From: Zygaena filipendulae | Taxonomy: Eukaryota > Arthropoda > Insecta > Lepidoptera > Zygaenidae | Assembly: GCA_907165275.2 (NCBI GenBank) | Contig: OU015660.1 | Coordinates: 2,668,501 to 2,732,500 of the forward strand | DNA: 64,000 nucleotides | Reading direction: 5' to 3' | Shown here: piece by piece, positions 771 through 61,937 of the stretch | Layout: each line of letters starts with the position of its first letter | Position numbering within the stretch: the first letter of the stretch is position 1 | Translations under genes and position numbers: made by a program | Notes under the pieces: model-generated | What the model was told of the DNA's origin: nothing | The model's input: only the letters and a program-made list of their open reading frames with translations | Database searches by the model: none

Positions 771-967
771 TTAATGATTATGTTCATTTTTCTTGCATAC
801 GATTTTGTCGTCTGTGGTGAATACGACGGCTCTGCATTTTTTCCTGCGATGGGTGGCGCAACTCCACCGGATCTTGCGGAAACTTTCCCTGTGTTTGACG
901 AATTTATACCCTTCGACGAATATCATACGTGTGCCTCTCGATGAGGTTACAATTTCCACGTGCTGAT
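771..967 (-). CDS. mod(mdg4): FX1: alternative terminal FLYWCH exon
   Basis: Terminal coding exon of 64 codons plus two bases that finish a split codon. The acceptor is tttcag ending at 968; translation starts AT-CAG-CAC-GTG. There is no ATG, so it cannot be an independent gene. FLYWCH residues: G19-Y20, F22, W34, C36, C44, H62, H64; the protein ends exactly at the final His of the finger, with no tail. An AATAAA on the minus strand lies about 80 bases past the stop (near 690). Being part of mod(mdg4) rests on the array context. The protein is identical to FX2 and FX3. Confidence 0.87.
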
Positions 968-1989
968 CTGAAATGCGATAAAATCATAAATTAGATTACA
1001 TTCATTTATTTCACATTATCAAATTGAAGTATCCAAGAATAAAGTGATCGCCAAAAATTTAAACCATGCTTCATAGTTCATAACTATAAAATACTTTGCA
1101 AATCCCTGACATTTAGTTTGTTACGTTCTTCTAACACACACGCACAGTGAAACTTATAACACCCCTCTGTGTGTTGGGGTTAACACATGGTTAACGTGAC
1201 ATGACAAGGTAGGTACGTTTTGTAATAACTCATAAAGAAGAGTAATTCGGGTCAAGTGTGCGCACTTTACCCTTTGAAGCTTCACCGTGCGTTAAAATAT
1301 TAAGAATTAGGAAAATAAAAAAATTGTTTTCAATAGAGCATTTATTAGGTTATCCATTAAAAAAGAAACGAAAGCATAAAGTATCTTATCTGATTTTTTT
1401 TTTATAATAATGAAGGCAAGTCGAATGCGTACACTTGACTCGTATGGCGGAGAAGTGTAGTAAGTCTACTTTTAATACATTATGACCCTAGGGGCAAGTG
1501 TATGCATGCGCATACTTACCCACGCACACTTTCCCCGAGAAGCCAAAATTCAAATGAATTACTGAGGCCGCCGAGAAAAAGAATTTAACCTAAAATTTCA
1601 TGTTCACATTTCAATAAAAATTTCCGTGTAACTAACAGAAAATGGACTTACCGTTATCAGATCACAATCTTGCAAGTAACAGTATTTTCCAAAACTCAAA
1701 AATGTAACGATTTTACCAACATAAACAGTTTTTACTAGATAAACAAATAACGAAACGTGGTGCGGCGCACGGACATGACCAGCTGGCGGCTACTGTTTCG
1801 TCCTTTAGCCCCTCCGGCGCCTCCGATCGACCCAAACAAACACCCCATCCCCCGCGTCCCGTTCTGAAGATGCAGGCCGTGTGCCGACTTTACCCACTGC
1901 GCTTGGTTACCTCAAAGGATTCTAAACCGACTAGGGTGCGTACAGACTATGTAACATGTTAGATAATAGGGATGTTGACTACTATTGAA
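968..1989. other. Intron-like spacer of tandem unit, copy 1
   Basis: No coding sequence is seen. It includes a GC-richer patch at about 1755-1880 and the minus-strand polypyrimidine tract and acceptor of FX1 at its left edge. The same content recurs at 3356-4377 and, in diverged form, at 5744-6350. Confidence 0.6.
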
Positions 1990-2281
1990 AATAAAAATTC
2001 TAATTAGTCCGTCAGTTAGAAAATAGAAAAACAATGGACACGTATTTTTTGCTTTTTTAAATAAAATAAAATATACAGAGATAAAGCGCATTAAAGTTTA
2101 GGATGAGGAGGCCGTGACGTCACTAACCCCAAAACCGCCATACAAACTGTCAGAATAGTGACGTCACGCGAAATTTCAACTCAATATATCGCTGTTATTT
2201 TTTGATTACGTAAAAAAAGAAAAAATACGTGTCCAATATTTTTTAATAATCTACAAGACAGACTAAAAAATAAAAATTAGT
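1990..2281. mobile_element. CRE-palindrome MITE, copy 1
   Basis: About 290 bp with imperfect terminal inverted repeats of roughly 50 bp: the left arm holds agtccgtcag and ggacacgtatttttt, and the right arm holds aaaaaatacgtgtcc and gacagact. The centre has two palindromic gtgacgtcac sites (near 2114 and 2158). No ORF. Related copies lie at 4378-4669, 28120-28575, 48545-48790, 52130-52400 and 60015-60305. Non-autonomous; parent transposon unknown. Confidence 0.75.
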
Positions 2282-3158
2282 CAACATGCCCATTGTGTTA
2301 TGTAACACGACCACATTATGTAACCTTGTTATTCAACATTGCAACATAAAACAATGCTGTTCACATTAGAATAATAAAGCATTATAACAATGTTATTTAA
2401 CCATTGTTGTTTCTCGTTCTTCAGTGCTATGCTATCCACAATATCATCGCTGAGTGGACGTTTTACTAGCTGCGACAGCGATTGTACTTTTAAATAACAT
2501 AAGAAAAACAAAAACTAACGTGACTAATTTTATAAGTTATATAACATTTTGTTATAACATTCAGTGTCTACATTAAGTATCTGAAACATGTAAGGTACAT
2601 ATCAATGTTGAATAACACGTTATGTTATATAGTCTGTAGTTTGTACGCATCGTTGTAACGTTCTTTAGTTGCTCTAAAATAAATTCGACATTATTATACA
2701 TTATACATAATTATTTCTTTTAATTTATCAAAAAATCTGTAAAATATGTATTTTTATTGCATGAAATGGTTTCGTCAAATCCGTTCCATGGATTGAATAT
2801 CGAGTTGTTGAAATAAAAATGTGCGAATATTAATTTATCTTTATTGTTCAATTAAGAGTAGTGAATGTAAGATAATATAAAAGACAGACAAAACATACGA
2901 GTATTACAGAAAATTAATAGCTTATTGTTACAATTTATTGTATTTTGAAACACTGAAAAAGCCGTATCTATCGTATTTTTTTTTACTTTATTTCAAAAAA
3001 TAGTTTATTAAAAAATAAAACAGTAGGTTGTAACAAGATACTTTTCATGATGAAACTTATAACACCTTCAACGAATCTTTATTACAAAAAATGATAAAGA
3101 AAAATACAAACTAGAGTCTTTGTACGTAAAAGATCTGTAATTCAAGTACATTTCATTT

Positions 3159-3355
3159 TTAATGATTATGTTCATTTTTCTTGCATACGATTTTGTCGTC
3201 TGTGGTGAATACGACGGCTCTGCATTTTTTCCTGCGATGGGTGGCGCAACTCCACCGGATCTTGCGGAAACTTTCCCTGTGTTTGACGAATTTATACCCT
3301 TCGACGAATATCATACGTGTGCCTCTCGATGAGGTTACAATTTCCACGTGCTGAT
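3159..3355 (-). CDS. mod(mdg4): FX2: alternative terminal FLYWCH exon (duplicate of FX1)
   Basis: The same 64-codon exon as FX1, exactly 2,388 bp further on, with the same tttcag acceptor, two-base phase and stop. The predicted protein is residue-for-residue identical to FX1 (W34, C36, C44, H62, H64). If both are used, the two transcripts would be indistinguishable at protein level. Confidence 0.86.
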
Positions 3356-4377
3356 CTGAAATGCGATAAAATCATAAATTAGATTACATTCATTTATTTC
3401 ACATTATCAAATTGAAGTATCCAAGAATAAAGTGATCGCCAAAAATTTAAACCATGCTTCATAGTTCATAACTATAAAATACTTTGCAAATCCCTGACAT
3501 TTAGTTTGTTACGTTCTTCTAACACACACGCACAGTGAAACTTATAACACCCCTCTGTGTGTTGGGGTTAACACATGGTTAACGTGACATGACAAGGTAG
3601 GTACGTTTTGTAATAACTCATAAAGAAGAGTAATTCGGGTCAAGTGTGCGCACTTTACCCTTTGAAGCTTCACCGTGCGTTAAAATATTAAGAATTAGGA
3701 AAATAAAAAAATTGTTTTCAATAGAGCATTTATTAGGTTATCCATTAAAAAAGAAACGAAAGCATAAAGTATCTTATCTGATTTTTTTTTTATAATAATG
3801 AAGGCAAGTCGAATGCGTACACTTGACTCGTATGGCGGAGAAGTGTAGTAAGTCTACTTTTAATACATTATGACCCTAGGGGCAAGTGTATGCATGCGCA
3901 TACTTACCCACGCACACTTTCCCCGAGAAGCCAAAATTCAAATGAATTACTGAGGCCGCCGAGAAAAAGAATTTAACCTAAAATTTCATGTTCACATTTC
4001 AATAAAAATTTCCGTGTAACTAACAGAAAATGGACTTACCGTTATCAGATCACAATCTTGCAAGTAACAGTATTTTCCAAAACTCAAAAATGTAACGATT
4101 TTACCAACATAAACAGTTTTTACTAGATAAACAAATAACGAAACGTGGTGCGGCGCACGGACATGACCAGCTGGCGGCTACTGTTTCGTCCTTTAGCCCC
4201 TCCGGCGCCTCCGATCGACCCAAACAAACACCCCATCCCCCGCGTCCCGTTCTGAAGATGCAGGCCGTGTGCCGACTTTACCCACTGCGCTTGGTTACCT
4301 CAAAGGATTCTAAACCGACTAGGGTGCGTACAGACTATGTAACATGTTAGATAATAGGGATGTTGACTACTATTGAA

Positions 4378-4669
4378 AATAAAAATTCTAATTAGTCCGT
4401 CAGTTAGAAAATAGAAAAACAATGGACACGTATTTTTTGCTTTTTTAAATAAAATAAAATATACAGAGATAAAGCGCATTAAAGTTTAGGATGAGGAGGC
4501 CGTGACGTCACTAACCCCAAAACCGCCATACAAACTGTCAGAATAGTGACGTCACGCGAAATTTCAACTCAATATATCGCTGTTATTTTTTGATTACGTA
4601 AAAAAAGAAAAAATACGTGTCCAATATTTTTTAATAATCTACAAGACAGACTAAAAAATAAAAATTAGT
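4378..4669. mobile_element. CRE-palindrome MITE, copy 2
   Basis: The tandem-unit copy of the element at 1990-2281, with the same inverted ends and both gtgacgtcac palindromes. It was duplicated together with the exon unit, so the MITE insertion predates the duplication. Confidence 0.75.
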
Positions 4670-5546
4670 CAACATGCCCATTGTGTTATGTAACACGTCC
4701 ACATTATGTAACCTTGTTATTCAACATTGCAACATAAAACAATGCTGTTCACATTAGAATAATAAAGCATTATAACAATGTTATTTAACCATTGTTGTTT
4801 CTCGTTCTTCAGTGCTATGCTATCCACAATATCATCGCTGAGTGGACGTTTTACTAGCTGCGACAGCGATTGTACTTTTAAATAACATAAGAAAAACAAA
4901 AACTAACGTGACTAATTTTATAAGTTATATAACATTTTGTTATAACATTCAGTGTCTACATTAAGTATCTGAAACATGTAAGGTACATATCAATGTTGAA
5001 TAACACGTTATGTTATATAGTCTGTAGTTTGTACGCATCGTTGTAACGTTCTTTAGTTGCTCTAAAATAAATTCGACATTATTATACATTATACATAATT
5101 ATTTCTTTTAATTTATCAAAAAATCTGTAAAATATGTATTTTTATTGCATGAAATGGTTTCGTCAAATCCGTTCCATGGATATTCATTCGAGTTGTTGAA
5201 ATAAAAATGTGCGAATATTAATTTATCTTTATTGTTCAATTAAGAGTAGTGAATGTAAGATAATATAAAAGACAGACAAAACATACGAGTATTACAGAAA
5301 ATTAATAGCTTATTGTTACAATTTATTGTATTTTGAAACACTGAAAAAGCCGTATCTATCGTATTTTTTTTTACTTTATTTCAAAAAATAGTTTATTAAA
5401 AAATAAAACAGTAGGTTGTAACAAGATACTTTTCATGATGAAACTTATAACACCTTCAACGAATCTTTATTACAAAAAATGATAAAGAAAAATACAAACT
5501 AGAGTCTTTGTACGTAAAAGATCTGTAATTCAAGTACATTTCATTT

Positions 5547-5743
5547 TTAATGATTATGTTCATTTTTCTTGCATACGATTTTGTCGTCTGTGGTGAATAC
5601 GACGGCTCTGCATTTTTTCCTGCGATGGGTGGCGCAACTCCACCGGATCTTGCGGAAACTTTCCCTGTGTTTGACGAATTTATACCCTTCGACGAATATC
5701 ATACGTGTGCCTCTCGATGAGGTTACAATTTCCACGTGCTGAT
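5547..5743 (-). CDS. mod(mdg4): FX3: alternative terminal FLYWCH exon (third copy)
   Basis: Third copy of FX1/FX2 with an identical protein, acceptor, phase and stop. Its upstream intron begins to differ from the other copies about 60-80 bases past the acceptor (from about 5805), whereas the exon and 3' side remain near-identical. That pattern fits recent exchange that included this exon but stopped just upstream of it. Confidence 0.86.
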
Positions 5744-6477
5744 CTGAAATGCGATAAAATCATAAATTAGATTACATTCATTTATTTCACATTATCAAAT
5801 TGAAAATTACATTGTCCAAGGATAAAGTGATCGCCAAAAATTTAAACCATGTTTCATAGTTCATAACTACAAAATACTTTGCAAATCCCTGACATTTAGT
5901 TTGTTACGTTTTTCTAACACACACGCACAGTGAAACTTATAACACCCCTCTGTGTGTTGGGGTTAATGCATGGTTAACGTGTCGTGAACTAACAGGTAGG
6001 TACGTTGTGTAATAAATCATAAAGAAGAGTCATTCGGGTCAAGTGTGCGCACTTTTCCCTTTGAAGCTTCACCGTGCGTTAAAATATTAAGAATCAGGAA
6101 AATAAAAAAAATGTTTTTAATGGAGCATTTAGTTTAGTGTTTTCCAATACACAAAAATGTAACAATTTTGCCAAAATAAATAGTATTTAGCAGATAAACA
6201 AATAACATAACGCGGTGCGGCGCACAGAAATGACCGGCTACTGTTTCGCCCTTTCGCCCCTCCGGCGCCTCCGATCGACCCAAACAAACACCCCGCAGCC
6301 GCCGGCCACTTTACCCACTGCGCTCGGTTACCTCGAATGATTGTAATAACGTTATTTAGCTGCTATAAAAGAAATTCGACAAGTCGGGAGTTCCCGAGAG
6401 AATTGGGTATTTTCCGAGTTATGAAAATCAAAATTCTAATGAGATAATGATGTAGATAAATTCATAAGGGTGGCGCT

Positions 6478-6612: not shown

Positions 6613-6662
6613 GGCCAAAGGGTAAGTGACGTTTCTTGGGTTTTGTTTTGGTACCTAATGTT

Positions 6663-6850
6663 TTAATGGCAATGTTGGTTCGTCACACAAACAATTTCGT
6701 CTTCGACGGTGGTGATGGCGGCTTTGCAGCCGAACCGGCGGTGCGTGGCGCAGAACCAGCGGATCTTCAAGGCGTTTTTCAGTTGCACGGTGTAAATGTA
6801 GCCGTTGTGCATCAGAGTGCGCGCCCCTCGGTCCGATATGCCAAAGACAG
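6663..6850 (-). CDS. mod(mdg4): FX4: alternative terminal FLYWCH exon
   Basis: Acceptor ggttctcag, then CT-GTC-TTT-GGC; 61 codons to TAA. Residues: N15-G16-Y17, Y19, W31, C33, C41, H59, H61. The His-x-His is written His-Cys-His (QHCH), so an extra Cys sits between the zinc His residues, as in FX7. No ATG opens the exon; the only internal Met is at residue 13. The finger ends the protein. Confidence 0.85.
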
Positions 6851-7432: not shown

Positions 7433-7629
7433 TTAATGACTATGTCCATTCCTTGTGCATACGATCTCGTCTTGTACCGTGTATACAACAGCTTTGCAAC
7501 CCTTGTTGCGATGGGAAGCGCAGAACCAGCGTGTTTTGAGTCCGGAATCCCTGTGTTTCGTGAATCGGAACCCATTAACCTTCAATATGCGGGTACCCCT
7601 GTTCGTATATTCGATACTGACAGCAGTAT
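7433..7629 (-). CDS. mod(mdg4): FX5: alternative terminal FLYWCH exon
   Basis: 64 codons after acceptor actattacag; reads AT-ACT-GCT-GTC. A second AG (ctgtcag, 13 bases inside) would put the exon out of the common phase, so the outer acceptor is chosen. Residues: N18-G19-F20, F22, W34, C36, C44, then GHSH with H62 and H64. Ends at the finger. Closest in style to FX1 and FX4 (KHRDSG, TRWFCASHR). Confidence 0.85.
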
Positions 7630-8248: not shown

Positions 8249-8457
8249 TTATTCCCAGATCGTTTCATGATTATGTTGTTGTCTCACGTTGACATCACGA
8301 TCATCGAACGTGACAACGGTCCCATTGCAACGCTTCCGCCGGTGCGTGGCGCAGACCCATCGCGTTTTCATCCGGGGTCCATTCTGCGAATGAACGATAT
8401 AGCTGTAACCGTCGTACCACAGAGTACGCGCTCCCTTCGCCGACATACCGATGGTCC
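8249..8457 (-). CDS. mod(mdg4): FX6: alternative terminal FLYWCH exon
   Basis: Acceptor attcgcag, then GG-ACC-ATC-GGT; 68 codons. Residues: D15-G16-Y17, Y19, W33, C35, C43, H61, H63, followed by a five-residue tail ETIWE. Open reading continues upstream through the acceptor to an ATG near 8494, but that ATG lies in the intron and the shared phase points to the spliced start. In the sheet after the second Cys it has NGTVV where most exons have a basic residue plus Ala. Confidence 0.84.
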
Positions 8458-12188: not shown

Positions 12189-12376
12189 TCAATGACAATG
12201 TTTATTTGGGAGGGAGACAACTACGTCGTCGATGGTGTAGGCAGAGCCCTTGCAACCTTTCGGGCGATGCGTGGCGCAACGCCACCTAGTTTTGTAGCCA
12301 AACTTTGAGTGGACCGTATATTTGTAGCCTTTAATCGACAGTGTGCGCGCTCCTCTATGCGAAGTGATGAAAGTAC
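12189..12376 (-). CDS. mod(mdg4): FX7: alternative terminal FLYWCH exon
   Basis: Acceptor tcgtttgcag, then GT-ACT-TTC-ATC; 61 codons to TGA. Residues: K15-G16-Y17, Y19, W31, C33, C41, H59-C60-H61 (again His-Cys-His). It has no ATG. After the second Cys it reads KGSAYT. Just downstream in mRNA sense (13 bases) begins the piggyBac-type MITE, which must supply any poly(A) signal. Confidence 0.85.
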
Positions 12377-13792: not shown

Positions 13793-14016
13793 TTAATTCT
13801 TTGGTTCATGATTATGTTCGTTCTTGAATGAAATCAGTTGATCGTCGATTGTAAAGACTACAGCAGGGCAATGGCGATAGTAATTCGATGAATTCACAGC
13901 ACATACCCATCTACACTTGCCAGTTCTACTACCGCTCTTCTTTTGCATAAAGTATTTGTATCCTCTGAAAAATACTACCCTTGTGCCCCTTTTAGATACT
14001 CCAAAATAAAAAGAAT
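13793..14016 (-). CDS. mod(mdg4): FX8: alternative terminal FLYWCH exon with long inter-Cys loop
   Basis: Acceptor gatttgtttcag, then AT-TCT-TTT-TAT; 73 codons to TAA. Residues: R17-G18-Y19, Y21, W36, C38, C49, H67, H69, tail EPKN. The two zinc Cys are separated by 10 residues, against 7 in most exons here, and an additional Cys (C34) precedes Trp. An AATAAA overlaps the stop codon itself (TAATAAAA on the minus strand). Confidence 0.85.
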
Positions 14017-16362: not shown

Positions 16363-16598
16363 TTAGAAATTATAGCGGTACAAATTTTTTGTGGTTTGAA
16401 CGTTCGGTAAATGATTATGTTCATTCTTGAACGAAACTGGCTCATCGTCCACTGTGAAGACTACAGCGCGACAACCCTTGGCCTGGTGAGTGCCGCAGAA
16501 CCAACGCACTTTCCTACCGATTTCCATATGCTTGAAATATTTATATCCTCTAAAAATTAATATTTTTGCACCTCTCGAAGTTTGTAGGTACATGTGAA
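16363..16598 (-). CDS. mod(mdg4): FX9: alternative terminal FLYWCH exon
   Basis: Acceptor ttctttcag, then TT-CAC-ATG-TAC; 77 codons. Residues: R16-G17-Y18, Y20, W32, C34, C42, H60, H62, followed by a 15-residue tail ending NLYRYNF. The core (RGYKYFK, VSFKNEHNH) is close to FX10 and FX11, which form a subgroup with FX8. Upstream ATG codons lie in the intron. Confidence 0.86.
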
Positions 16599-16675
16599 CT
16601 GAAAGAAAAAAAATCTGTTCTAGAGCCATAAAACGGAATTTCTTACTTGGTGTTAATAATCTTAATCTATCTATC

Positions 16676-16903
16676 TAATATATATAAATCACGTGTCACG
16701 TTGTTTGTCCGCGATGGACTCCGAAACTACTGAACGGATTTTGATAAAATTTTGCAACCGTTTATAATATGATCCAACTTAAAAGATAGGATAGTTTTTA
16801 TCCCGGAATTCCCTCGGGAACTGAAGGACATAGAGTACTTTGTTCCCTCAACATCCGCGGGAACTCCGAAATTACCGCGGATGAAATCGCGGGGGACAGC
16901 TAG
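16676..16903 (+). mobile_element. HLE copy, full-length
   Basis: One 228-bp copy of the unit found in tandem at 10.2-11.0 kb: starts ctaatatatataaatcacg and ends gaaatcgcgggggacagctagt. It lies about 80 bases upstream of FX9 in mRNA sense, in the intron. Confidence 0.75.
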
Positions 16904-18222: not shown

Positions 18223-18416
18223 TTAATGATTATGGTCGTTTTTGAATGACACCAGTCGATCATCGACCGTGACGACTACAGCGCGACAGCCGTGGAACGA
18301 ATTTAGAGCGCACGCCCAGCGACACTTGAAGCCGTAGCTTTTGTTTTTAAAATACTTGTAGCCTCTAAAATATACCACTCTTGTTCCTCTATTCGATATA
18401 TCAAATCGAAATGAAT
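18223..18416 (-). CDS. mod(mdg4): FX10: alternative terminal FLYWCH exon
   Basis: Acceptor ttgtttttag (TAG rather than CAG), then AT-TCA-TTT-CGA; 63 codons to TAA. Residues: R17-G18-Y19, Y21, W33, C35, C43, H61, H63, ending at the finger. C31 just before Trp parallels the extra Cys of FX8. The inter-Cys loop reads ALNSFHG, unusual in lacking the common SSH/ATH. Confidence 0.85.
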
Positions 18417-21253: not shown

Positions 21254-21456
21254 TCAGGCTGGCTGATGATTATGTTCACTTTTGATTGACAGCAGTTCGT
21301 CGTATACTGTGTAAACCGCGGCCCGACAACCTTTGTTCTGGTGAGTGCCGCAGAACCAACGAGTCTTGCAACCGTTTCGTCTTTGCTTGAAATATTTATA
21401 ACCTCTATAAAGCAGTACTTTTGCACCTCTAGCAGTGTATTGGTATGATATAGGTC
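21254..21456 (-). CDS. mod(mdg4): FX11: alternative terminal FLYWCH exon
   Basis: Acceptor tatgttttcag, then GA-CCT-ATA-TCA; 66 codons to TGA. Residues: R17-G18-Y19, Y21, W33, C35, C43, H61, H63, tail QPA. Close to FX9 (RWFCGTHQ-KGCRA). C29 precedes the Trp. The stop lies about 235 bp from the right end of the Tc1-like element, so the 3'UTR could run toward it. Confidence 0.86.
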
Positions 21457-21921: not shown

Positions 21922-22121
21922 TTAACGATCATGATTGTGTTCATTGCGCGTGCTCACGACCTGATGCTGGTTGGTGTAGACGGCGGCCGTGCACCGTTGC
22001 TTGTGTTTGCTACATCTCCATCTCATCCAGTTATCGTGTCTGGTAAAATTGGAATCTTTGTAAAACTTGTATCCCATATAGGTCAAAATAGGTGTACCTC
22101 TATTGGACACGAGATATTGAA
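21922..22121 (-). CDS. mod(mdg4): FX12: alternative terminal FLYWCH exon
   Basis: Acceptor ctctttcag, then TT-CAA-TAT-CTC; 65 codons to TAA. Residues: M15-G16-Y17, F19, W34, C36, C43, H61, H63, tail DR. The inter-Cys loop is one residue shorter than usual (six residues, as in FX13 and FX18), and the loop between Tyr and Trp is longer. Only about 465 bp from FX11. Confidence 0.85.
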
Positions 22122-23119: not shown

Positions 23120-23694
23120 ACTTGCTTAATCTGTACTAATATTATAATGAGCAAAAGTTTGTGAGTTTGTGTCGTTGTAAGGGGTAATCTCGGAATCTAC
23201 TGAACCGATTTTGAAAATTCTTTCACTCATAGGAAGCTACAGTGATCCTAAGTGTCATATGGTACTTTTTATTCCGGAGTTCCCGCGGAACTCCGAACTT
23301 CCCGCGGGTAAAACCACGGGAGAAAGCTAAAGTGATCTTGAGTGACATCTTTTTAACCCGGACTTCCCGCGGGAACTCAGGAGTTGGTGAGTTCACGTGT
23401 TTGTGAGATTGTAGGGGGTAACCTCTGGATGTACAGAACCGATTTTAAAAATTCTTTCACTTATAAGTAGCTACAGTGATCCTGTGTGACAAAGGATACT
23501 TTTGTCCCGGAATTCCCGCGGGAACTCCGGAGTTTGTGAGGTTGTAATCTATGGATCTACTACACCGATTTTGAAAATTCTTTCACTTATAGACAGGAAG
23601 ATAAAGTGATCCTGAGTGACATAGGATACTTTTATCCCGGAATTCCCGCGGGAACTCCGAGATAACCGCGGGTGAAACCGCGGGGCGCGGCTAG
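23120..23694 (+). mobile_element. HLE cluster ending in CTAG at the FX13 stop
   Basis: Three or four head-to-tail pieces, each with ctttcactyatag-type and cccgcgggaactcc-type segments, ending in a hairpin (aaccgcgg, gtgaaa, ccgcgg) followed by ggcgcggctag at 23694. The terminal CTAG contains the stop codon of FX13 on the other strand. Confidence 0.7.
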
Positions 23695-23917
23695 TAACTA
23701 ATAAACTTGAAAGGTGTTAACGGATGATTGTGAGCGTTCATAACATGGACGACGATATCGTCCACAGTGCGCAGCGACACGAGGCAGCCCCTCATGTGTT
23801 TGGAACAGCGCCATCTTTTTAGTCCTTTGTTGCTATTGTCGAAACGCGTGTCGTTGTAGTACGTGTTGCCCATGTAATGTAAAATTCGATTGCCTTTTGA
23901 CGATATTCGGTATGTAA
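23691..23917 (-). CDS. mod(mdg4): FX13: alternative terminal FLYWCH exon, stop supplied by a transposon end
   Basis: Acceptor tatcttttccag, then TT-ACA-TAC-CGA; 74 codons. Residues: Y14, G16, Y19, W35, C37, C44, H62, H64, tail PLTPFKFISY. The Gly-x-x-Tyr part is altered (YMGNTYY), and the inter-Cys loop has six residues. The TAG stop (23691-23693) is the reverse reading of the CTAG that terminates the adjoining Helitron-like element, so the element's insertion appears to have set the present C-terminus. Confidence 0.84.
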
Positions 23918-25880: not shown

Positions 25881-26095
25881 TTAATTCGAATCGGGCGGGT
25901 GTTTATGGCTGTTGCGCAACCATACCACCTCGTGACCGTAAGTGCGAACGGTGACAGTACACCCAGCGGATGTGTACTTCGAACACCTCCAGTACTTCAG
26001 TGCGCCGCTGCTCTCCGCATACCGCGTGTCCTTGTAATACGTGAATCCATTGTGTTCCAGCATAATTTTTCCTTGTCTCGATGTTACGTAATTAA
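25881..26095 (-). CDS. mod(mdg4): FX14: alternative terminal FLYWCH exon
   Basis: Acceptor ttttacttttag (TAG), then TT-AAT-TAC-GTA; 70 codons to TAA. Residues: N15-G16-F17, Y19, W35, C37, C45, H63-K64-H65, tail PPDSN. This is the first exon from the left with the Pro-Pro after the last His that marks the right half of the array (FX14, FX15, FX17, FX18 and on). An internal ATG at residue 11 is not a start, given the phase. Confidence 0.85.
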
Positions 26096-27761: not shown

Positions 27762-28045
27762 TCAATCGCTTTCTTCTCTCTCTTGTCTCGTCTCTTCACC
27801 GCTATCAACATCACCATCGTTCCAGACGAGCCACTTCTTTTTCTTGGGCGGGTGGGTGTGGCTCTCGTTAATTTTCGCCAAGCCGCCGTTAGCGGTGTAC
27901 ACGGTCGCCCTGCAGCCGAGGTGGTGATGTGTGGAGCATCTCCAACGTTCTGTCTTGGAGCCGGCTAGAGTCTTCGAGTAAGTGTATTTGTTTAATAACA
28001 CAAGACAATTGCCTCTTTGTGATCTCACATAACACCAAGTTGTTA
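27762..28045 (-). CDS. mod(mdg4): FX15: FLYWCH exon with charged tail
   Basis: Acceptor tcgttcaacag, then TA-ACA-ACT-TGG; 93 codons, among the longest here. Residues: N18, Y20, Y22, W34, C36, C44, H62-T63-H64, then PPKKKK followed by an acidic run (WNDGDVDSGEETRQEREESD). The Gly of the G-F/Y pair is replaced by Lys (NKY). The basic-then-acidic tail is unlike any other exon and could be a separate interaction surface. Confidence 0.85.
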
Positions 28046-30324: not shown

Positions 30325-30425
30325 TTTTATGTCATAGGGGGCAAACGGGCAAGTGGTACACCTGATGGTAAGTGATTACCGCCGCCCATAGACATCTGCA
30401 ACACCAGAAGGCATGCGGGTGCGTT
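30325..30425. repeat. Common lepidopteran interspersed repeat fragment
   Basis: Sequence gggcaaacgggcaagtgg, cacctgatggtaagtgatta and ccgccgcccata are typical of a repeat widespread in moth and butterfly genomes. It abuts the FX16 stop (30424), so FX16 coding ends at the edge of the repeat. Confidence 0.6.
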
Positions 30426-30638
30426 ATTCACTTATGTAGGTGGACGCATGAGTGTGACCTGAGCGGTCATACACCACATAGTCTTTGACAGTGGTGATGA
30501 CGGCTTTGCAACCTCGGTTTGTATGACTTGAACATCTCCAGCGACACTTGGACCCGCGTGAAGTACTGACTAAGTAATAACTATACCCTTTCCACAGGGC
30601 AAGTCGCTTCTTAGTTCTCGCCGATAGTATGAATTGAA
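30424..30638 (-). CDS. mod(mdg4): FX16: alternative terminal FLYWCH exon
   Basis: Acceptor ttctttcag, then TT-CAA-TTC-ATA; 70 codons. Residues: K16? G17-Y18, Y20, W33, C35, C43, H61-T62-H63, tail ASTYISE. The end of the tail and the stop fall at the border of an interspersed repeat, so the last residues may be repeat-derived. The finger core (CRWRCSSHTNRGCKAVI) is typical. Confidence 0.84.
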
Positions 30639-31560: not shown

Positions 31561-31796
31561 CTATTTAACCCAGCCGTAAATTTGTAGTTTTGGCTGTAAT
31601 CGAGGCGGCGGATGGTTGTGAACGTCCATCATCCTTATTATTTCGTCTTTGATGGTGTAGAGCGTCGCTCGACACCCACAGTGGAGGTTGGTGGAGCATC
31701 GCCATCTAATTTTGAGTCGACCTTCGGACGCTATGCAATACGTGTATCCGTTAAGCTTTATCATACGCTTACCGCGTTTCGAGACTGTGTATTCCA
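31561..31796 (-). CDS. mod(mdg4): FX17: alternative terminal FLYWCH exon
   Basis: Acceptor cttttttcag, then TG-GAA-TAC-ACA; 77 codons to TAG. Residues: N15-G16-Y17, Y19, W31, C33, C41, H59, H61, then PPPRLQPKLQIYGWVK. Here the standard right-half form starts: (S-x-RGKR)-(5 residues)-NGYTY and a 31-residue distance to Trp, kept in FX19, FX23, FX27-FX29. An extra Cys lies at C39. Confidence 0.86.
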
Positions 31797-32596: not shown

Positions 32597-32820
32597 TCAC
32601 GTTTTTTGGTTATCGCTGTTTATACTATACGTAGGTGGATGATTATGTGATTCTTTAAGTAAATGGATATAACCATCGACGGTATGAACTCTAGCAGTAC
32701 AACCTCTGCTTTGATACGAGCATTTCCACCGTACCTTAGCATTAGTGCTGGGTCTCTTAGAGTACGTATATCCGTTTAGGGCAATTAAGCGGGTGCCTTT
32801 TTTCGACCACACGTATTCGA
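32597..32820 (-). CDS. mod(mdg4): FX18: alternative terminal FLYWCH exon
   Basis: Acceptor atgttttacag, then TC-GAA-TAC-GTG; 73 codons. Residues: N15-G16-Y17, Y19, W31, C33, C40, H58, H60, tail PPTYSINSDNQKT. The inter-Cys loop is one residue short (SYQSRG). The N-terminal EYVWSKKGTR is closest to EYTVSKRGKR of FX17. Confidence 0.85.
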
Positions 32821-34125: not shown

Positions 34126-34343
34126 TTAATGTTTTCGCTGACGTTGTTTAGGAGGTTCGTGATTATGTTGTTCCATTACATATATTACGCTGTCCTCAAT
34201 CGTGTACACAAAGGCGGGACACCGCTGGCACTGGCGCGAGGAACAGCGCCATCTCTTTTTCAAACCAACACTGATTACCCCTGAATATGTGTACCCGTTC
34301 AGAACTAGTAAACGCTTGCCTCTTTGTGAAGTTGTGAACATAG
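34126..34343 (-). CDS. mod(mdg4): FX19: alternative terminal FLYWCH exon
   Basis: Acceptor aatttcatttcag, then CT-ATG-TTC-ACA; 71 codons to TAA. Residues: N15-G16-Y17, Y19, W31, C33, C41, H59, H61, tail EPPKQRQRKH (basic). The first whole codon happens to be ATG, but the two-base phase before it and the acceptor show it is an internal Met. C38 is an extra Cys in the loop. Confidence 0.86.
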
Positions 34344-34868: not shown

Positions 34869-35119
34869 CTAATACATATTATTATAGTTAATTATGTTAT
34901 TTCGATATTGTGAAGGTATTAATTGTTTAGGTACAGGGTGTATATGTTTGTCATTAACTGGGACGATATTATCATCTACCGTGTACAGATAGGCTTTACA
35001 ATTTTTGTTGGAGGAACATTTCCATTGAATCTTAAAAGAACCTTCAGGGGACTTCGCAGTATATCTGAATCCATTCAAGATTATCATGCGGTTGCCTTTT
35101 TGTGAGGTTGTGAATATAG
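34869..35119 (-). CDS. mod(mdg4): FX20: FLYWCH exon with short inter-Cys loop
   Basis: Acceptor tattcaatttcag, then CT-ATA-TTC-ACA; 82 codons to TAA. Residues: N15-G16-F17, Y19, W32, C34, C40, H58-I59-H60. Only five residues separate the two Cys (SSNKN), the shortest loop in the array. The 22-residue tail is rich in Asn and Tyr (QYRNNIINYNNMY), as if it ran into former 3'UTR. It lies about 525 bp upstream of FX19 in mRNA sense. Confidence 0.84.
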
Positions 35120-37126: not shown

Positions 37127-37374
37127 TTAAATCGCAGCGCGTGCTAAGCTTTGGAATCGAAGTACGCGATATTGCTGGAGAGACGGATGATTGTGTTTTT
37201 CGTACACATATGTGATTTCATTGAAGACTGTGTGCAGGCGAGCTGTGCATCCTTTGCTTTTGTGCGAGGAACATCTCCATCGTAACTTGTAACTTCTCGT
37301 ACACGACGTCGTGGAATACGTGAATCCATTCAGCAATACCAATCTTTTGCCCCTCCGTGAGATCGTGAAAGTTG
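37127..37374 (-). CDS. mod(mdg4): FX21: alternative terminal FLYWCH exon
   Basis: Acceptor actgttctcacag, then CA-ACT-TTC-ACG; 81 codons. Residues: N15-G16-F17, Y19, W32, C34, C42, H60, H62, then a tail of 19 residues (PSLQQYRVLRFQSLARAAI) rich in Arg and Leu. An extra Cys at 24 lies in the loop before Trp. The TTSRRGKR-type N-terminus groups it with FX19-FX23. Confidence 0.86.
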
Positions 37375-41135: not shown

Positions 41136-41395
41136 TTAATTGCTTTTCCGATCGGTAAACGTAATCGTAATGGTTTTACGTTTAGGTTCACGACTCATGC
41201 TCTGAGGGTGATTGTGCGTTTCCTTCAAAAAGATGATCTCATCATCGAGTGTGTGCAAGCAGGCATTGCATCCTTTGTTTTGGTGCGATGAACATTTCCA
41301 TCTGGTTTTGAAACCTCCTTTTCTGGGCGTGGTGGAATACGTATATCCATTGAGTATTATCAAGCGTTTTCCTTTTCGTGACGTAGTAAATAGAG
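41136..41395 (-). CDS. mod(mdg4): FX22: FLYWCH exon with basic tail
   Basis: Acceptor ataaatttcag, then CT-CTA-TTT-ACT; 85 codons to TAA. Residues: N15-G16-Y17, Y19, W32, C34, C42, H60, H62, then PQSMSREPKRKTITITFTDRKSN, with PKRK resembling a short nuclear import motif. An extra Cys (C45) follows the second zinc Cys. The stop is about 70 bp from the LINE 3' end. Confidence 0.87.
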
Positions 41396-41841: not shown

Positions 41842-42128
41842 TTAACAAAATATGAACGTTCTTCCCGCGTAACCTTTCACTGTATGTTGTCCGAGGTGCA
41901 CTTGACCGGTTTTTTTTTTATTTTTTTTATTTTTCAGTGGCGGGTGATTATGATTTTCTTTTTTCAAGACAATCTCGTCTCCTTTCGTGATAACGCATCC
42001 GGTACAGCCAATGTTATGGTTCACCGAACATCTCCATCTAATCTTGTGACTAGAGCTGGGCGTTGCAGCGTATGTGAACCCGTTCAGTGTCATTATCCGA
42101 CCCCCTCTGCGTGATGTCGTGAATTTGA
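41842..42128 (-). CDS. mod(mdg4): FX23: FLYWCH exon with Lys/Asn-rich tail
   Basis: Acceptor ataaaattccag, then TC-AAA-TTC-ACG; 94 codons, the longest in the array. Residues: N15-G16-F17, Y19, W31, C33, C41, H59, H61, then PPLKNKKNKKKTGQVHLGQH and on to a final Cys. The Lys-rich run is coded by a T-rich stretch and may grow by slippage. The loop reads SVNHNIG, and C44 is an extra Cys. Parent-type of the pseudo-exon at 43286-43531. Confidence 0.86.
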
Positions 42129-43003: not shown

Positions 43004-43242
43004 TTATATTTTCACGTAGTCACCCTTAAGGGTGACGATGTATTTGGGCCGTTCGTGGTAATGCCCCACATGCTTCTCTTCAATCTTCTTCCAATCGCGG
43101 TCGAGCTTTATTCGCGCCTTACAACCGCTGTTCTTCTTCGAACAGTAGAACAAAGTGCTGCGGCGCAGCTGAGAGAATGTGAAACCGTCGTACATCAACA
43201 ACGTTTTACCCTTTTTAGTCGGGATCATCGTGTAGTCAGTAT
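43004..43242 (-). CDS. mod(mdg4): FX24: divergent FLYWCH exon (Phe-Tyr-Cys type)
   Basis: Acceptor aatcagtttcag, then AT-ACT-GAC-TAC; 78 codons to TAA. Residues: D18-G19-F20, F22, then F31-Y32-C33 in place of Trp-x-Cys, C40, H60-Y61-H62, and an 18-residue tail ending GDYVKI. The Cys-to-His distance is longer (19 between C40 and H60) and includes a Lys/Glu-rich segment. With FX25 and FX26 it forms a separate subfamily. Confidence 0.84.
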
Positions 43243-43285: not shown

Positions 43286-43531
43286 TCAAGGGATCTGTGC
43301 GTGGTCCGACGCGCACTTAGCTGGATTTTTTTTATTTTCCAGTAGCGGATGATTAGCCTTCATCAGGACTCTCTCGTCTCCGAACATGATAACGCATCCG
43401 GTACAGCCAACGTTATGGTTCACAGAAAATCTCCATCTATTTTTGCGACTGCAGCTGGGCGATGCAGCATGTGTGAACCCGTTCAATATCATTATCTGGG
43501 GGCACGGTAGTGCACCGCCAAGACGAGCCAA
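43286..43531 (-). pseudogene. Decayed FX23-type FLYWCH exon
   Basis: The frame reads MILNGFTHAASPSCSRKNRW then RFSVNHNVGCTGCVI, clearly an FX23 copy. Breaks: the first zinc Cys is Phe (WRFS), Tyr of the TY pair is His, the His-x-His is lost by deletion (MKANHPLLENKK for KKENHNHPPLKNKK), and the acceptor side is replaced by GC-rich sequence (ccccagata). Only 43 bp from FX24; FX23-FX24-type pairs were therefore duplicated as blocks. Confidence 0.8.
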
Positions 43532-48250: not shown

Positions 48251-48489
48251 TTATATTTTCACGTAGTCACCCTTAGAGGTGAGGATGTACTTGGGCCGTT
48301 CGTGGTAATGCCCCACATGCTTCTCTTCAATCTTCTTCCGATCGCGGTCGAGCTTTATTCGCGCCTTACAACCGCTGTTCTTCTTCGAACAGTAGAACAA
48401 AGCGCTGCGGTGCAGCTGAGAGAATGTGAAACCGTCGTACATCAACATAGTTTTACCCTTTCTAGTCGGGATCATCGTGTAGTCAGTAT
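48251..48489 (-). CDS. mod(mdg4): FX25: divergent FLYWCH exon (Phe-Tyr-Cys type)
   Basis: Acceptor aatcagtttcag, then AT-ACT-GAC-TAC; 78 codons. Nearly identical to FX24 (for example R8 for K8, and S70 for the tail Leu). F31-Y32-C33, C40, H60, H62 are kept. The whole 3'UTR past the stop is now solo-LTR sequence, which carries poly(A)-type signals only in its own orientation. Confidence 0.84.
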
Positions 48490-51806: not shown

Positions 51807-52045
51807 TTATATTTTCACGTAGTCACCCCTAACGGTGACGATGTACTTGGGCCGTTCGTGGTAATGTTCCACATATTTCTCTACAATCTCCTTCATATCG
51901 CAGTCGAGCTTTATTCGCGCCTTACAACCGCTGCTCTTCTTCGAACAGTAGAACAAAGAGCTGTGATGCTGCTGAGAGAATGTGAAACCGTCGTACATCA
52001 ACATAGTTTTACCCTTTTTAGTCGGGATCATCGTAAAGTCAGTAT
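51807..52045 (-). CDS. mod(mdg4): FX26: divergent FLYWCH exon (Phe-Tyr-Cys type)
   Basis: Acceptor aatcattttcag, then AT-ACT-GAC-TTT; 78 codons. F31-Y32-C33, C40, H60-Y61-H62 kept; differs from FX24/FX25 at about 12-15 sites, mostly in QQHHSS and CDMKEIVEKYVE. The finger residues and GDYVKI tail are unchanged, so the pattern looks like constraint. Its 3' flank is uninterrupted and shows the ancestral state for the two insertions at 44142 and 47375. Confidence 0.84.
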
Positions 52046-54617: not shown

Positions 54618-54817
54618 TCACTTGGGTGGTGGGTGGTCGTGTTTATCTTTGATGGAGATGATGATATCGTTGTGCGTGTACAAGGCGGCAGTACAACCCT
54701 TGCACTGGTGCGACGAACACTTCCACCGTACCTTGGAGCCGGTGCTAGGCGTCGTACTGTAACTGTATCCATTCAGCAATATCAAGCGTTTGCCTCTCTG
54801 TGAAACTGAGAACTGAG
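54618..54817 (-). CDS. mod(mdg4): FX27: alternative terminal FLYWCH exon
   Basis: Acceptor atagtttcag, then CT-CAG-TTC-TCA; 65 codons to TGA. Residues: N15-G16-Y17, Y19, W31, C33, C41, H59-D60-H61, tail PPPK. The central Asn of the usual His-Asn-His is Asp. An extra Cys (C38) is in the loop. Very close to FX28 and FX29 (LILLNGYSYSTTPS, VRWKCSSHQ-KGCTAA). Confidence 0.86.
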
Positions 54818-57881: not shown

Positions 57882-58096
57882 TTATTTTGCCTCCTTTGCC
57901 TTGGTTGGGGGATGGTTGTGTTTTTCTTTGATTAAGACGATGTCATCCTTGTACGTGTATATGGCGGCAGTACAACCCTTGCACTGGTGCGATGAACACT
58001 TCCACCGTACCCTGGAGCCGGCGCTAGGCGTCGTACTGTAACTGTATCCGTTCAGCAATATCAAGCGATGGCCTCTCTTTGAAATTGAGTAATGAA
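57882..58096 (-). CDS. mod(mdg4): FX28: alternative terminal FLYWCH exon
   Basis: Acceptor attctttgtttcag, then TT-CAT-TAC-TCA; 70 codons to TAA. Residues: N15-G16-Y17, Y19, W31, C33, C41, H59, H61, tail PPTKAKEAK. Same loop as FX27 (SSHQCKG). The splice start residue differs from FX27 and FX29 (TT instead of CT) although the phase is kept. Confidence 0.87.
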
Positions 58097-58214: not shown

Positions 58215-59033
58215 TACACGACGTCTGTTACACCAACATCACTGTCGAACAGCTGGACAAACTCGAACGGTTGCAGAATGTGTGTATCCGCTTCATATAT
58301 GGATTGCGTAAGTTTGACCATGTTTCTGAATACAGGGTTAGGCTTGGCTGGCTCCCGATCCGATTGAGGCGCAATGTGCATATCCTGCATACAGTATATA
58401 AGGTACTACATGATCCCATGGCCCCTACCTACCTTAAAGAACAATTTAAGTTCTGCTCCGACTGTAGTGGCCGTGCTCCTCGTTCCTCTACTTTTAAACT
58501 GATTGCTGTCCCTTTCCATAAATCACGGTTTTTCGAAAAATCCTTCACTGTCGAAAGTATACGCCTGTGGAACTCCCTCCCCGACTCGCTCAGACAGAAA
58601 GAGTCATTGGGCTCTTTTAAAGCTGCACTTCAAAGGCACTATTTAATTCTAAGTGGCTATCTACAGAAATTATGATTAATGTATGTAGTGTAAAATATCA
58701 TTTTATTTTTATTTTTATATGTGTATTATATCACCTATTGCTACGTGTATGTATGTATGGCATATGTATGTATGTGTATAAAGTTGTATTATATTTAGGA
58801 TATCTAAGTATTAGCGTTGTATTATCCTTATATAGTATATAGATAGGTATTACGTTGTGCACCCAGCACCCGCTTCTAGTTTGTATTTGCAGCTCTCTAT
58901 CACCTTAAGGTTGCCTTGAAAAGATTGCCTCTAGCAATAAGGCCGCCTTTTGCTCTGTATTTACTTTTTATGTGTCTTAGTTTTTATTTTCTCTTCTGGG
59001 GCAATAAAGCATATTTGATTTGATTTGATTTGA
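58215..59033 (+). mobile_element. Jockey-type LINE 3' end with (ttgat)n tail
   Basis: 5'-truncated insertion in the FX28 intron. Contains the last 150 or so RT-ORF codons (continuing 58271-58675), a 3'UTR with gttgccttgaaaagattgcc, and a tail gatttgatttgatttga at 59014-59031. The same 3'UTR type is seen at 61260-61425 and, with other tails, at 24160 and 52800. Confidence 0.82.
58217..58675 (+). pseudogene. C-terminal fragment of a LINE reverse transcriptase
   Basis: Reads LQNVCIRFIYGLRKFDHV, then YRVRLGWLPIRLRR and IRLWNSLPDSLRQ, the conserved C-terminal part of jockey-group polymerases. All RT catalytic blocks are missing. The frame is intact to its own stop at 58675. Confidence 0.82.
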
Positions 59034-59159
59034 AGGTATTAATAGAGGATTAGAATAAAAGCCGAAACACAATTTACTTCATACAACAATGTTTTAGAAT
59101 AGAATAGATTAGAAATATATTTATTTACACACACACCACGACATAAAACAACAAAATAT

Positions 59160-59890: not shown

Positions 59891-60014
59891 AATTAATGAA
59901 ACTATAACTCTACAGCATGTAAGGTTAAACGAGTCAGTAATGTAAAATAATTTAGCTATAGCGTTGATTTTGCACTACAGTAATATGTGAAAGCTGATAA
60001 TAGGCTAGTTTCCT

Positions 60015-60305
60015 AAATTTTTTTTTTTAGTCCGTTTTGTAGATTATTAAAAAATATTGGACACGTATTTTTTTTTTTTATGTAACCAAAAAATAACGGA
60101 GATATATCAAGTCGAAATTTCACATGACGTCACGCCTCGCTACAGTTTGTTCGCACGTTATAGCGAGCTGTGAAGTCACGAGTCCCCCACCCTAAACTTT
60201 AATGCGCTTTATCTATGCATATTTCCATTATTTTAAAAAAGCAAAAAATACGTGTCTTTTATTTTTTTATTATCTAACTGACGGACTAAATAGAATTTTG
60301 TTTTT
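60015..60305. mobile_element. CRE-palindrome MITE, copy near FX29
   Basis: tagtccgttttgtagatta and ggacacgtattttttt at the left, catgacgtcacgcc and a decayed gtgaagtcacgag in the centre, aaaaaatacgtgtc and actgacggacta at the right. Confidence 0.7.
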
Positions 60306-61084
60306 TTTACCCAGGAAACTAGCTTATTGGCCTTATTTTTATCTATTCTTTGCAATCTACTTTTGTATATCTAGCTGTAAGCTTTCCAAATAGTGTGCAA
60401 AATAAAAAACAAAAAAAAATACAGTGAAATGAGGCAACATTTCATTCCTGATTAATAACGATGCACTATGATTAAAATAGCAATACAGTTACCAATTTTA
60501 TTTTAAAATGAAGCTAATCAAGTATAGCTGTGATTTTTATCTATATGTGTGTTTTCCCCGTTTCGCTTTCCTATAGTACCGACTTTGTTTCATCGCAATT
60601 AGTTTCCGAAAATATAACTTTTCACAATGTTTAAAAAGTTCGGCGACAGGTGTTGCAAGTGCACTTTAAAAAACCACGCGTATAGAGCCGCAGCTCGCAG
60701 GCAAAAATCCAGGGTGAAATAAAAACCAGTCTAAATGTAGATCATTTATTTATACAAACTCACATATCCAAAATATAATAGATATATTTATATCTACTTT
60801 ATTTTTTTATCGCATGTGAAACCCACAAATCCAAAATAGATTTGCGTGACCACATCTAAGAATTGATCAATTTATGATATGACCATTTCATAAATTGTTG
60901 CATTTCAGGAAATAAATGGTCGACCACATCATGATGGCATTTATTTTTTGCAGTTATCATAATAAATAATAATAATTATCTATTTATAAATAATGAAGAA
61001 TCAAGTATTTTTTTTTTCGTAAATAGGCTACAGGTTCTTAGACATCGACTTTAAATCATATATACATAATATAAGACTTAACAA

Positions 61085-61425
61085 ATTACTCTGGTTACTC
61101 TGGTTAGCGCAATAGGTTCCGTGAACAGTGTATGTATTAGTACATTTTAAGCATATTTGTTGTTGCTGCTGTTTTGTATGTGTATATATATATTTGTTTA
61201 TGTCCGTTTAATGTATTTAGACTGTTTTTGGAATGTTATCTAAATGCCGCACTCTCTACCTTTCTCTTCCTCTCTCCCTCTAACTTAGGTTGCCTATGAA
61301 AAGATTGCTCTTAACAATATAGGTCACCTAAATTGTACGTACCTACTATGTAACTGTGTCTTTGTAATATGTGTTTTCTTCTGTGTGCGTGCAATAAAGT
61401 ATATTTGATTTGATTTGATTTGAAA
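61085..61425 (+). mobile_element. LINE 3'UTR fragment with (ttgat)n tail
   Basis: gttgcctatgaaaagattgc, gtgcaataaagtatatttga, then gatttgatttgatttgaa. Same family as 58215-59033 but without coding sequence. Inserted in the segmental repeat just left of the FX29 region. Confidence 0.75.
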
Positions 61426-61731
61426 TTACATGTATGATGTATCCAGTAACTGTAACTGAACACTTCACCCCAACCAAGCAGCCCGCCCCTGGTCGCTCCT
61501 GGCGCAAAAGACCCCATGAGTCATGACGCTCGCTATGTTTCCGCGGTGATTTGCCACGGATAACCTCTGTTCGTGTCTTACAGTATATGAATTTCTAGTA
61601 TTTTGGCATGTCGAACGTTTGGCACTGTGTTTTTGGGACGCGCGTTATGGGCAAGGAATGTTGTTGATTGGTGAATGAGGGGGTTTAGTATACTTGACGG
61701 ATTTGCAAGGCTACATTTTTAAGTATTTTCT

Positions 61732-61937
61732 CTACTTTCCCTTTGGTGGTGGATGGTTGTGTTTGTCTTTGATTAAGATGATGTCATCATGGTACGTGTA
61801 TATGGCGGCAGTACAACCCTTGTTCTGATGCGACGAACACTTCCACCGTACCTTGGGGCCGAGGCTAGGCGTCGTACTGTAACTGTATCCGTTCAGCAAT
61901 ATCAAGCGTTTGCCTCTTATCGAAACTGAGAAATGAG
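61732..61937 (-). CDS. mod(mdg4): FX29: alternative terminal FLYWCH exon
   Basis: Acceptor ctatggtttcag, then CT-CAT-TTC-TCA; 67 codons. Residues: N15-G16-Y17, Y19, W31, C33, C41, H59, H61, tail PPPKGK. SSHQNKG loop without the extra Cys of FX27/FX28. An ATG upstream at 61992 keeps the frame open, but it is on the far side of the acceptor. It is the rightmost exon in the window. Confidence 0.87.

What the first reader, a model, noticed from the sequence alone, without database searches (positions are those of the whole stretch)
771..61937. Array of 29 intact alternative FLYWCH terminal exons, all on one strand: a giant mod(mdg4)-type locus
Seen: 29 minus-strand exons with acceptor, no start codon, one FLYWCH finger and a private stop, over 61 kb, none with a donor. 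Known: in Drosophila mod(mdg4) about 30 such exons are joined to a common BTB part, some by trans-splicing, and a multi-isoform orthologue exists in Lepidoptera. Inferred: this is part of that locus, expanded, and extends beyond the window on both sides. Unlike Drosophila, no exon here is on the opposite strand. Distance alone (tens of kb of terminal exons, each with its own 3' end) makes trans-splicing or extreme alternative polyadenylation necessary.
Basis: partly seen in the sequence, partly recalled or inferred. Interest (0 to 1): 0.9.

Follow-up and report, generated by a model that had tools for sequence, protein, structure and literature searches.

The report
Giant moth or butterfly mod(mdg4) locus
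This stretch of what appears to be a moth or butterfly chromosome is the middle of one enormous gene, mod(mdg4), which seems to keep more than 200 interchangeable last exons on both DNA strands, several times more than the reports found for other insects, and so looks like an extreme case of making many proteins by joining separate RNAs.

Summary
The window has 30 FLYWCH frames, all minus; 29 have a phase-1 acceptor and a private stop, and the 30th (43289-43498) is decayed. The window is C11:2668501-2732500 of a 366-Mb genome. Common BTB exons lie upstream on the same strand, C11:3138315-3137316, ending CAAG|GTAGGT, the phase-1 donor the acceptors need. In 120 of 120 lepidopteran isoforms the junction residue has a codon beginning with G. 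The array is about ten times the window: at least 243 FLYWCH units over 631 kb, 189 minus and 54 plus. Plus-strand acceptors are phase 1 in 43 of 47; 24 of 24 sister pairs have dN/dS below 1 or saturated dS. No plus-strand common part was found (capped), so plus-strand exons need trans-splicing; window exons, 407-468 kb from the donor on its strand, do not need it by position. It belongs to the published lepidopteran mod(mdg4) system (Danaus: 40 isoforms) but is several-fold larger. No RNA data.

The parts
771..967 (-). FLYWCH terminal exon E01
   Evidence: acceptor phase 1, stop TAA; identical to E02 and E03
3159..3355 (-). FLYWCH terminal exon E02
5547..5743 (-). FLYWCH terminal exon E03
6663..6850 (-). 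FLYWCH terminal exon E04
7433..7629 (-). FLYWCH terminal exon E05 (blind rule picks another YAG, phase 2)
8249..8457 (-). FLYWCH terminal exon E06
12189..12376 (-). FLYWCH terminal exon E07 (blind rule picks another YAG, phase 2)
13793..14016 (-). FLYWCH terminal exon E08
16363..16598 (-). FLYWCH terminal exon E09
18223..18416 (-). FLYWCH terminal exon E10
21254..21456 (-). FLYWCH terminal exon E11 (blind rule picks another YAG, phase 0)
21922..22121 (-). FLYWCH terminal exon E12
23691..23917 (-). FLYWCH terminal exon E13
25881..26095 (-). FLYWCH terminal exon E14
27762..28045 (-). FLYWCH terminal exon E15
30424..30638 (-). FLYWCH terminal exon E16
31561..31796 (-). FLYWCH terminal exon E17; 61% identical over 69 aa to the tail of a Pararge BTB isoform (P0041)
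32597..32820 (-). FLYWCH terminal exon E18
34126..34343 (-). FLYWCH terminal exon E19
34869..35119 (-). FLYWCH terminal exon E20
37127..37374 (-). FLYWCH terminal exon E21
41136..41395 (-). FLYWCH terminal exon E22
41842..42128 (-). FLYWCH terminal exon E23 (blind rule picks another YAG, phase 2)
43004..43242 (-). FLYWCH terminal exon E24
43289..43498 (-). E25: decayed partial copy of an E23-like exon; no phase-1 acceptor at the usual place, no Pfam match
48251..48489 (-). FLYWCH terminal exon E26
51807..52045 (-). FLYWCH terminal exon E27
54618..54817 (-). FLYWCH terminal exon E28
57882..58096 (-). FLYWCH terminal exon E29
61732..61937 (-). FLYWCH terminal exon E30
331..6146 (.). tandem triplication, period about 2388 bp (units from 331, 2707 and 5095; the last one partial), each carrying one identical exon

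Best explanation
The window is an internal tenth of the mod(mdg4) locus of an insect that is, by its closest relatives, a lepidopteran. Shown: one set of common exons (BTB domain, minus strand, C11:3138315-3137316) ends in a phase-1 donor, and at least 243 FLYWCH units lie on both strands in a 631-kb span that begins 22 kb downstream of it; of the units tested most have matching phase-1 acceptors, and the sister pairs tested show constraint. Inferred: each mRNA joins the common part to one terminal exon (in some annotated relatives two or three fingers), giving proteins with a constant BTB part and a variable FLYWCH finger. Inferred for the plus-strand exons: they are transcribed from their own promoters and joined by trans-splicing. 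For the same-strand exons, including all in the window, cis- or trans-splicing is possible; trans is favoured by the published Drosophila, Bombyx and Danaus cases. Inferred for how it grew: local tandem duplication, inversion of blocks and divergence of copies.
For: Common exons found on the same contig and strand; exon 1 is 89-96% identical over 70-71 aa to the eight lepidopteran proteins compared, most of which NCBI names 'tramtrack, beta isoform'; BTB by Pfam. The donor ...GATGCTCAAG|GTAGG ends in phase 1 with base G. In 120 of 120 isoforms with the common part (of 127 proteins held) the residue after GDAQ is G, V, E, D or A. 29 of 30 window acceptors are phase 1 by hand; the blind rule gives 103 of 115 (plus 43 of 47, minus 60 of 68), control 647 of 1941. 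Of the three units found in 3.11-3.12 Mb, two match BTB-joined tails of other moths, 3113486 at 79-81% and 3114005 at 62-71%. Exons at 2519849 (85%) and 2661571 (75%) align from the junction residue of Vanessa isoforms, 2543535 (64%) from that of a Papilio isoform. 24 of 24 disjoint sister pairs (13 plus, 11 minus; 55-99.9% identity; one minus pair includes the decayed E25) have dN/dS below 1 (22) or saturated dS (2), median 0.18. No common-region match in 2.49-2.75 Mb, read in full. Best match lies within 3 ranks for 71 of 116 exons (null mean 5.9, maximum 19).
Against: No RNA evidence for this species. Only 5 of 116 exons are 60% or more identical to any of the 120 isoform tails held, none of them plus-strand, so use of most exons, and of every plus-strand one, rests on phase and constraint. 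The unit nearest the donor (3115130) matches tails at only 30-35%. Twelve of 115 frames are not phase 1 by the blind rule. The youngest window groups have dN/dS from 0.48 to 1.05 (E24-E26 1.02, E28-E29 1.05), so some copies may be relaxed or redundant. AATAAA is not enriched after the stops. No analogue of the Drosophila terminator was identified: the structured block tested in the donor intron is a dispersed repeat. The absence of a plus-strand donor rests for 2.49-2.75 Mb and elsewhere on a capped search (106 of 257 candidates scored).
Confidence: 0.87

Rival explanations
1. One very long minus-strand primary transcript joins the window exons to the common part by ordinary cis-splicing, each terminal exon with its own poly(A) site; trans-splicing is not used for the same-strand exons.
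For: Donor and all 29 window exons are on the same strand in the right order; at least 189 of 243 units are so placed. Distances of 407-468 kb do not exclude cis-splicing (general knowledge).
Against: At least 54 plus-strand units, with the same acceptor phase where tested (43 of 47) and constrained sister pairs (13 of 13), cannot be reached in cis. In Drosophila all isoforms are reported as trans-spliced (PMC12692577, part 1 of 5 read), and Danaus takes 33 of 40 isoforms from the opposite strand (PMC4667647, section 8).
Confidence: 0.25
2. The frames are independent FLYWCH genes or remnants with no link to a common BTB part.
For: Some lepidopteran annotations list FLYWCH proteins without BTB (P0001-P0006, P0008); 8 of 29 window frames have an in-frame ATG before the RG motif.
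Against: Shared acceptor phase matching the donor, orthologous exons annotated as joined to the BTB part, no ATG before the RG motif in 21 of 29 frames.
Confidence: 0.04
3. The three identical E01-E03 units (and perhaps other very similar blocks) are an assembly artefact such as unmerged haplotypes.
For: Units A and B differ at 1 of 1350 sites over 1357-2706 and at none over 771-1356.
Against: A and B differ by 21 mismatches and 26 gap columns over 331-770, and C differs from both by 9 mismatches over 968-1200, which fits real copies of different age; the other window exons are not affected.
Confidence: 0.2

Closest known systems
mod(mdg4) of Danaus plexippus and Plutella xylostella (PMC4667647; passages and section 8 read)
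   Same: common BTB donor, alternative FLYWCH acceptors, on both strands in Danaus, locus of several hundred kb (550 kb in Danaus); 37 of 40 and 37 of 41 isoforms with FLYWCH
   Different: reported 40 and 41 exon combinations (24 acceptor genes in Danaus), counted from transcripts and annotation; here at least 243 FLYWCH units counted from DNA, so the two numbers are not the same measure. In Danaus 7 isoforms use same-strand and 33 opposite-strand acceptors; here at least 189 units are same-strand and 54 opposite
mod(mdg4) of Drosophila melanogaster (PMC12692577 part 1 of 5 read; PMC11727487 passages)
   Same: constant exons with BTB joined to one alternative 3' exon, some on the opposite strand
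   Different: 31 combinations (PMC4667647); terminator and intron motifs shown experimentally there; no terminator analogue identified here
mod(mdg4) of Bombyx mori
   Same: trans-splicing reported; 6 of 9 isoforms with FLYWCH (PMC4667647 passages)
   Different: 9 isoforms reported there; proteins named mod(mdg4)-heS00531 appear for Aphomia sociella
lola and Dscam1 of Drosophila (recalled, except that lola trans-splicing is mentioned in PMC4667647)
   Same: a constant part combined with many alternative exons
   Different: lola uses C2H2 fingers; Dscam1 uses internal mutually exclusive exons; neither carries FLYWCH (all recalled)

Membership tests
mod(mdg4) | common N-terminal part with BTB domain, orthologous to mod(mdg4) | tested here: met
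   C11:3138315-3137316 minus, exon 1 89-96% identical to the eight lepidopteran proteins compared, Pfam BTB
mod(mdg4) | many alternative 3' exons, most with one FLYWCH finger and an own stop | tested here: met
   29 intact in the window; at least 243 units in the locus, a few partial or decayed
mod(mdg4) | one shared splice phase between the common donor and the acceptors | tested here: met
   donor phase 1; 29 of 30 window acceptors by hand; 103 of 115 by blind rule; 120 of 120 isoform junction residues
mod(mdg4) | orthologous terminal exons joined to the common part in related species | tested here: met
   five exons at 62-85% (3113486, 3114005, 2519849, 2661571, 2543535) against annotated protein models; none is in the window, where the best is E17 at 61%; transcripts not seen
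mod(mdg4) | terminal exons on both strands (Drosophila, Danaus) | tested here: met
   54 plus-strand units outside the window; none in the window
mod(mdg4) | trans-splicing of two primary transcripts | not testable with these tools
   no RNA reads; implied by plus-strand exons only
mod(mdg4) | structured non-canonical terminator in the last common intron (Drosophila) | tested here: inconclusive
   the block tested (z -10.4) is a dispersed repeat; only the first 7.3 kb of the intron were scanned, other stable blocks not followed
tramtrack (NCBI name of many of these lepidopteran proteins) | C2H2 zinc fingers after the BTB (recalled) | tested here: not met
   variable parts in the window are FLYWCH: 27 of 28 distinct frames by Pfam, no other family
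stand-alone FLYWCH genes | own start codon before the finger | tested here: not met
   21 of 29 frames have no ATG before the RG motif; 8 of 29 do

The most novel reading that the evidence does not exclude
This locus holds one of the largest sets of interchangeable last exons of any gene: at least 243 FLYWCH units, probably 260-300 (my estimate), on both strands, fed by a single BTB donor through trans-splicing. It would be a fast-turning repertoire of FLYWCH fingers, perhaps tuned against changing DNA targets such as mobile elements.
Probability: 0.35. Interest if true: 0.85.

Novelty: new variant of a known kind. Interest (0 to 1): 0.64.

Why it matters
If transcripts confirm it, one gene makes over 200 proteins by joining a constant part to exons on both strands over 630 kb, several times the 40 or so combinations reported for other Lepidoptera (PMC4667647). 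It gives a natural series of well over 100 acceptors with one donor in which the rules of trans-splicing (strand, distance, acceptor strength) can be read from RNA data, and it asks why Lepidoptera need so many FLYWCH fingers on one BTB protein, whose Drosophila counterpart serves chromatin insulators (abstract of PMC5666082, seen in a search listing).

Tried and rejected
Structured terminator like the Drosophila NTT: the donor intron block at L039:6150-6600 folds far better than shuffles (z -10.4), but near copies lie at 26 other places (86-100% identity over the matched pieces), so it is a dispersed repeat; rejected. A second stable block at +1450 to +1850 has inverted ends (seen by eye) and looks like a palindromic element; not tested.

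GGTA cluster: the first 500 nt of the donor intron hold 17 GGTA and no TACC (shuffles mean 7.9, maximum 17 in 1000), and CAGGTAAGTAA at +168. It resembles the idea of intronic U1 sites that help trans-splicing in Drosophila (title only seen, in a reference list). A 58-bp tandem duplication inflates the count, and its copy number in the genome could not be tested. Left as a lead.

Poly(A) signals: no enrichment. Lineage-specific clustering: 89 of 116 exons have their nearest tip inside the locus and 27 in another species, but the comparison set is the 120 best hits of one query out of 2703, so it is biased.

Census limits: 2.75-3.11 Mb was seen only through capped searches (one search scored 150 of 332 candidates; one search scored 106 of 257), a few small loci and one 10-kb stretch (2.77-2.78 Mb), in which the union held 9 of 11 units. 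In 2.49-2.75 Mb the capped list held only 41 of 116. At least four of the 243 are partial or decayed (2489878, E25, 2556472, 2945376). The left end of the array was not reached. The estimate 260-300 is mine.
Full report
CHECK OF THE OBSERVATION. Composition is 35.8% GC. A profile built from 13 distinct frames of the window, searched in all six frames, finds 30 FLYWCH frames at i-E <= 1e-4, all on the minus strand. Pfam FLYWCH matches 27 of 28 distinct members; the one miss is E25, 43289-43498, a 5'-truncated copy of an E23-like exon. For the other 29 a pyrimidine-AG acceptor lies 6-10 codons before the conserved RG, in phase 1, when placed by hand at the conserved position. Each of the 29 ends in its own stop. 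If the base before the acceptor is G, the first residue is always A, V, D or G. E01-E03 are identical, carried by a tandem repeat of about 2388 bp. Eight of 29 frames do have an in-frame ATG before the RG motif, and four have a loose donor-like pattern inside. AATAAA is not closer to the stops than expected.

WHAT IT BELONGS TO. The window holds no match to the common part. A protein search with six window exons joined found, among six proteins, a Papilio protein with BTB and FLYWCH (P0007). P0007 found 2703 proteins, of which 120 were listed, all lepidopteran by the names shown; the names include 'tramtrack, beta isoform', 'modifier of mdg4' and 'mod(mdg4)-heS00531'. Of 127 proteins held, 120 carry the common part ending GDAQ, and the next residue is G 45, V 34, E 16, D 13, A 12: all codons that begin with G. 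So the common exon should end in G in phase 1. The seven without it are P0001-P0006 and P0008, FLYWCH hits without BTB.

THE WHOLE LOCUS. The window is C11:2668501-2732500 of a 365.9-Mb genome in 56 contigs. P0007 finds the common part at C11:3138312-3137312 on the minus strand. The sequence gives three coding exons from ATG 3138315, the last ending GGGGATGCTCAAG|GTAGGT at 3137316: exactly the predicted phase and base. Exon 1 is 89-96% identical to the eight lepidopteran proteins compared. The window exons thus lie 407-468 kb downstream of the donor on its own strand.

COUNT. In 2.49-2.75 Mb, read completely, a profile of the window exons finds 116 FLYWCH frames: 68 minus and 48 plus, in blocks (plus 11, minus 1, plus 1, minus 13, plus 36, minus 54); a wider profile adds two, one of them partial. 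The union is 241 units from 2483705 to about 3115375, 54 plus and 187 minus; a further 10-kb stretch adds two minus units, giving at least 243. Beyond 2.75 Mb the count rests mainly on capped searches and is a lower bound; at least four units are partial or decayed. The left end was not reached.

ARE THEY REAL EXONS. A blind rule (best pyrimidine-rich YAG in a fixed interval) gives phase 1 for 103 of 115 frames (one had no YAG): 43 of 47 plus, 60 of 68 minus; random anchors give 654, 647, 640. In the window it gives 25 of 30; E05, E07, E11 and E23 have a phase-1 site that the rule does not rank first. Exons are related by descent, so these are not independent events, but the acceptors have been kept. 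Of 24 disjoint sister pairs (13 plus, 11 minus), 22 have dN/dS below 1 and two have saturated dS; median 0.18. Among full window exons the youngest pairs range from 0.48 to 1.05. Of three units in 3.11-3.12 Mb, two (3113486, 3114005) match tails of BTB isoforms of Diatraea, Chilo, Chrysodeixis, Helicoverpa and Galleria at 62-81%; the third, 3115130, matches at 30-35%. Exons at 2519849, 2661571 and 2543535 match Vanessa and Papilio isoforms at 85, 75 and 64%, starting at the junction residue. Only 5 of 116 reach 60% against the tails held, none plus-strand, so most are fast-evolving, or their orthologues are outside the 120 of 2703 listed.

HOW IT WORKS. Shown: one donor, many compatible acceptors, both strands, constraint in the pairs tested. 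Known: in Drosophila all mod(mdg4) mRNAs are reported to be trans-spliced, with acceptors transcribed from their own promoters (PMC12692577, part 1 of 5 read), and a structured terminator in the last common intron is proposed to prevent cis-splicing (PMC11727487, passages). In Danaus 40 isoforms come from 24 acceptor genes over 550 kb, 33 from the opposite strand; Plutella has 41 and Bombyx 9 combinations (PMC4667647, passages and section 8). Inferred: the plus-strand exons here need trans-splicing, as no common-region match exists in 2.49-2.75 Mb and (106 of 257 candidates scored) lists no plus-strand BTB in the locus.

GROWTH OF THE ARRAY. The best match of an exon lies within three ranks for 71 of 116 (null mean 5.9, maximum 19) and on the same strand for 105 of 116 (null mean 59, maximum 78). 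This fits local tandem duplication and block inversion. E01-E03, E24/E26/E27 and E28-E30 are young local groups in the window; E25 shows decay.

NOVELTY. Lepidopteran mod(mdg4) with dozens of trans-spliced FLYWCH isoforms is in print. What I did not find is a report of a locus with this many terminal exons. The searches were of the held library only, for mdg4 with FLYWCH, Lepidoptera, butterfly, moth, silkworm, exons and trans-splicing, and FLYWCH with Lepidoptera and expansion; one search found nothing. In these listings PMC4667647 is the one multi-species study of the locus that I recognised. PMC4033408 (passages) counts 3 BTB-FLYWCH genes in Bombyx and 5 in the monarch and does not name mdg4. 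These were listings and passages, not full reading, and most subscription journals are not held. Isoform numbers up to X50 suggest that other species also have many; whether more than 200 is general is open, and published counts are of transcripts while mine is of DNA units.

Confidence: identity as mod(mdg4) very high; use of most exons likely; trans-splicing for plus-strand exons likely, for window exons plausible.

Noticed in passing
window 19698-20720, minus: 340-aa open frame that looks like a Tc1/mariner-type transposase (recalled resemblance) between exons E10 and E11.
   Followed up: no
window 39029-40900, plus: 623-aa open frame that looks like a non-LTR reverse transcriptase (recalled resemblance), between E21 and E22; a further fragment at 58271-58675.
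   Followed up: no
window 10178-11005, also near 16671-16916 and 37756-38069: 230-bp tandem repeat with dispersed copies at about 91-97%.
   Followed up: partly
G000:C11:7255040-7261074, minus: A second BTB match (64-67% identical to the mod(mdg4) BTB) with a FLYWCH frame about 5 kb away, 4 Mb from the locus: possible single-finger paralogue.
   Followed up: no
L039:6150-6600 (C11:3136150-3136600, minus), donor intron: Strongly folding palindromic block, z -10.4, with near copies at 26 other places in the genome: a dispersed repeat inserted in the last common intron.
   Followed up: yes
L039:6820-7150 (C11, minus), donor intron: 17 GGTA and no TACC in the first 500 nt after the donor, with CAGGTAAGTAA at +168: 5'-splice-site-like cluster that could bind U1.
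   Followed up: partly
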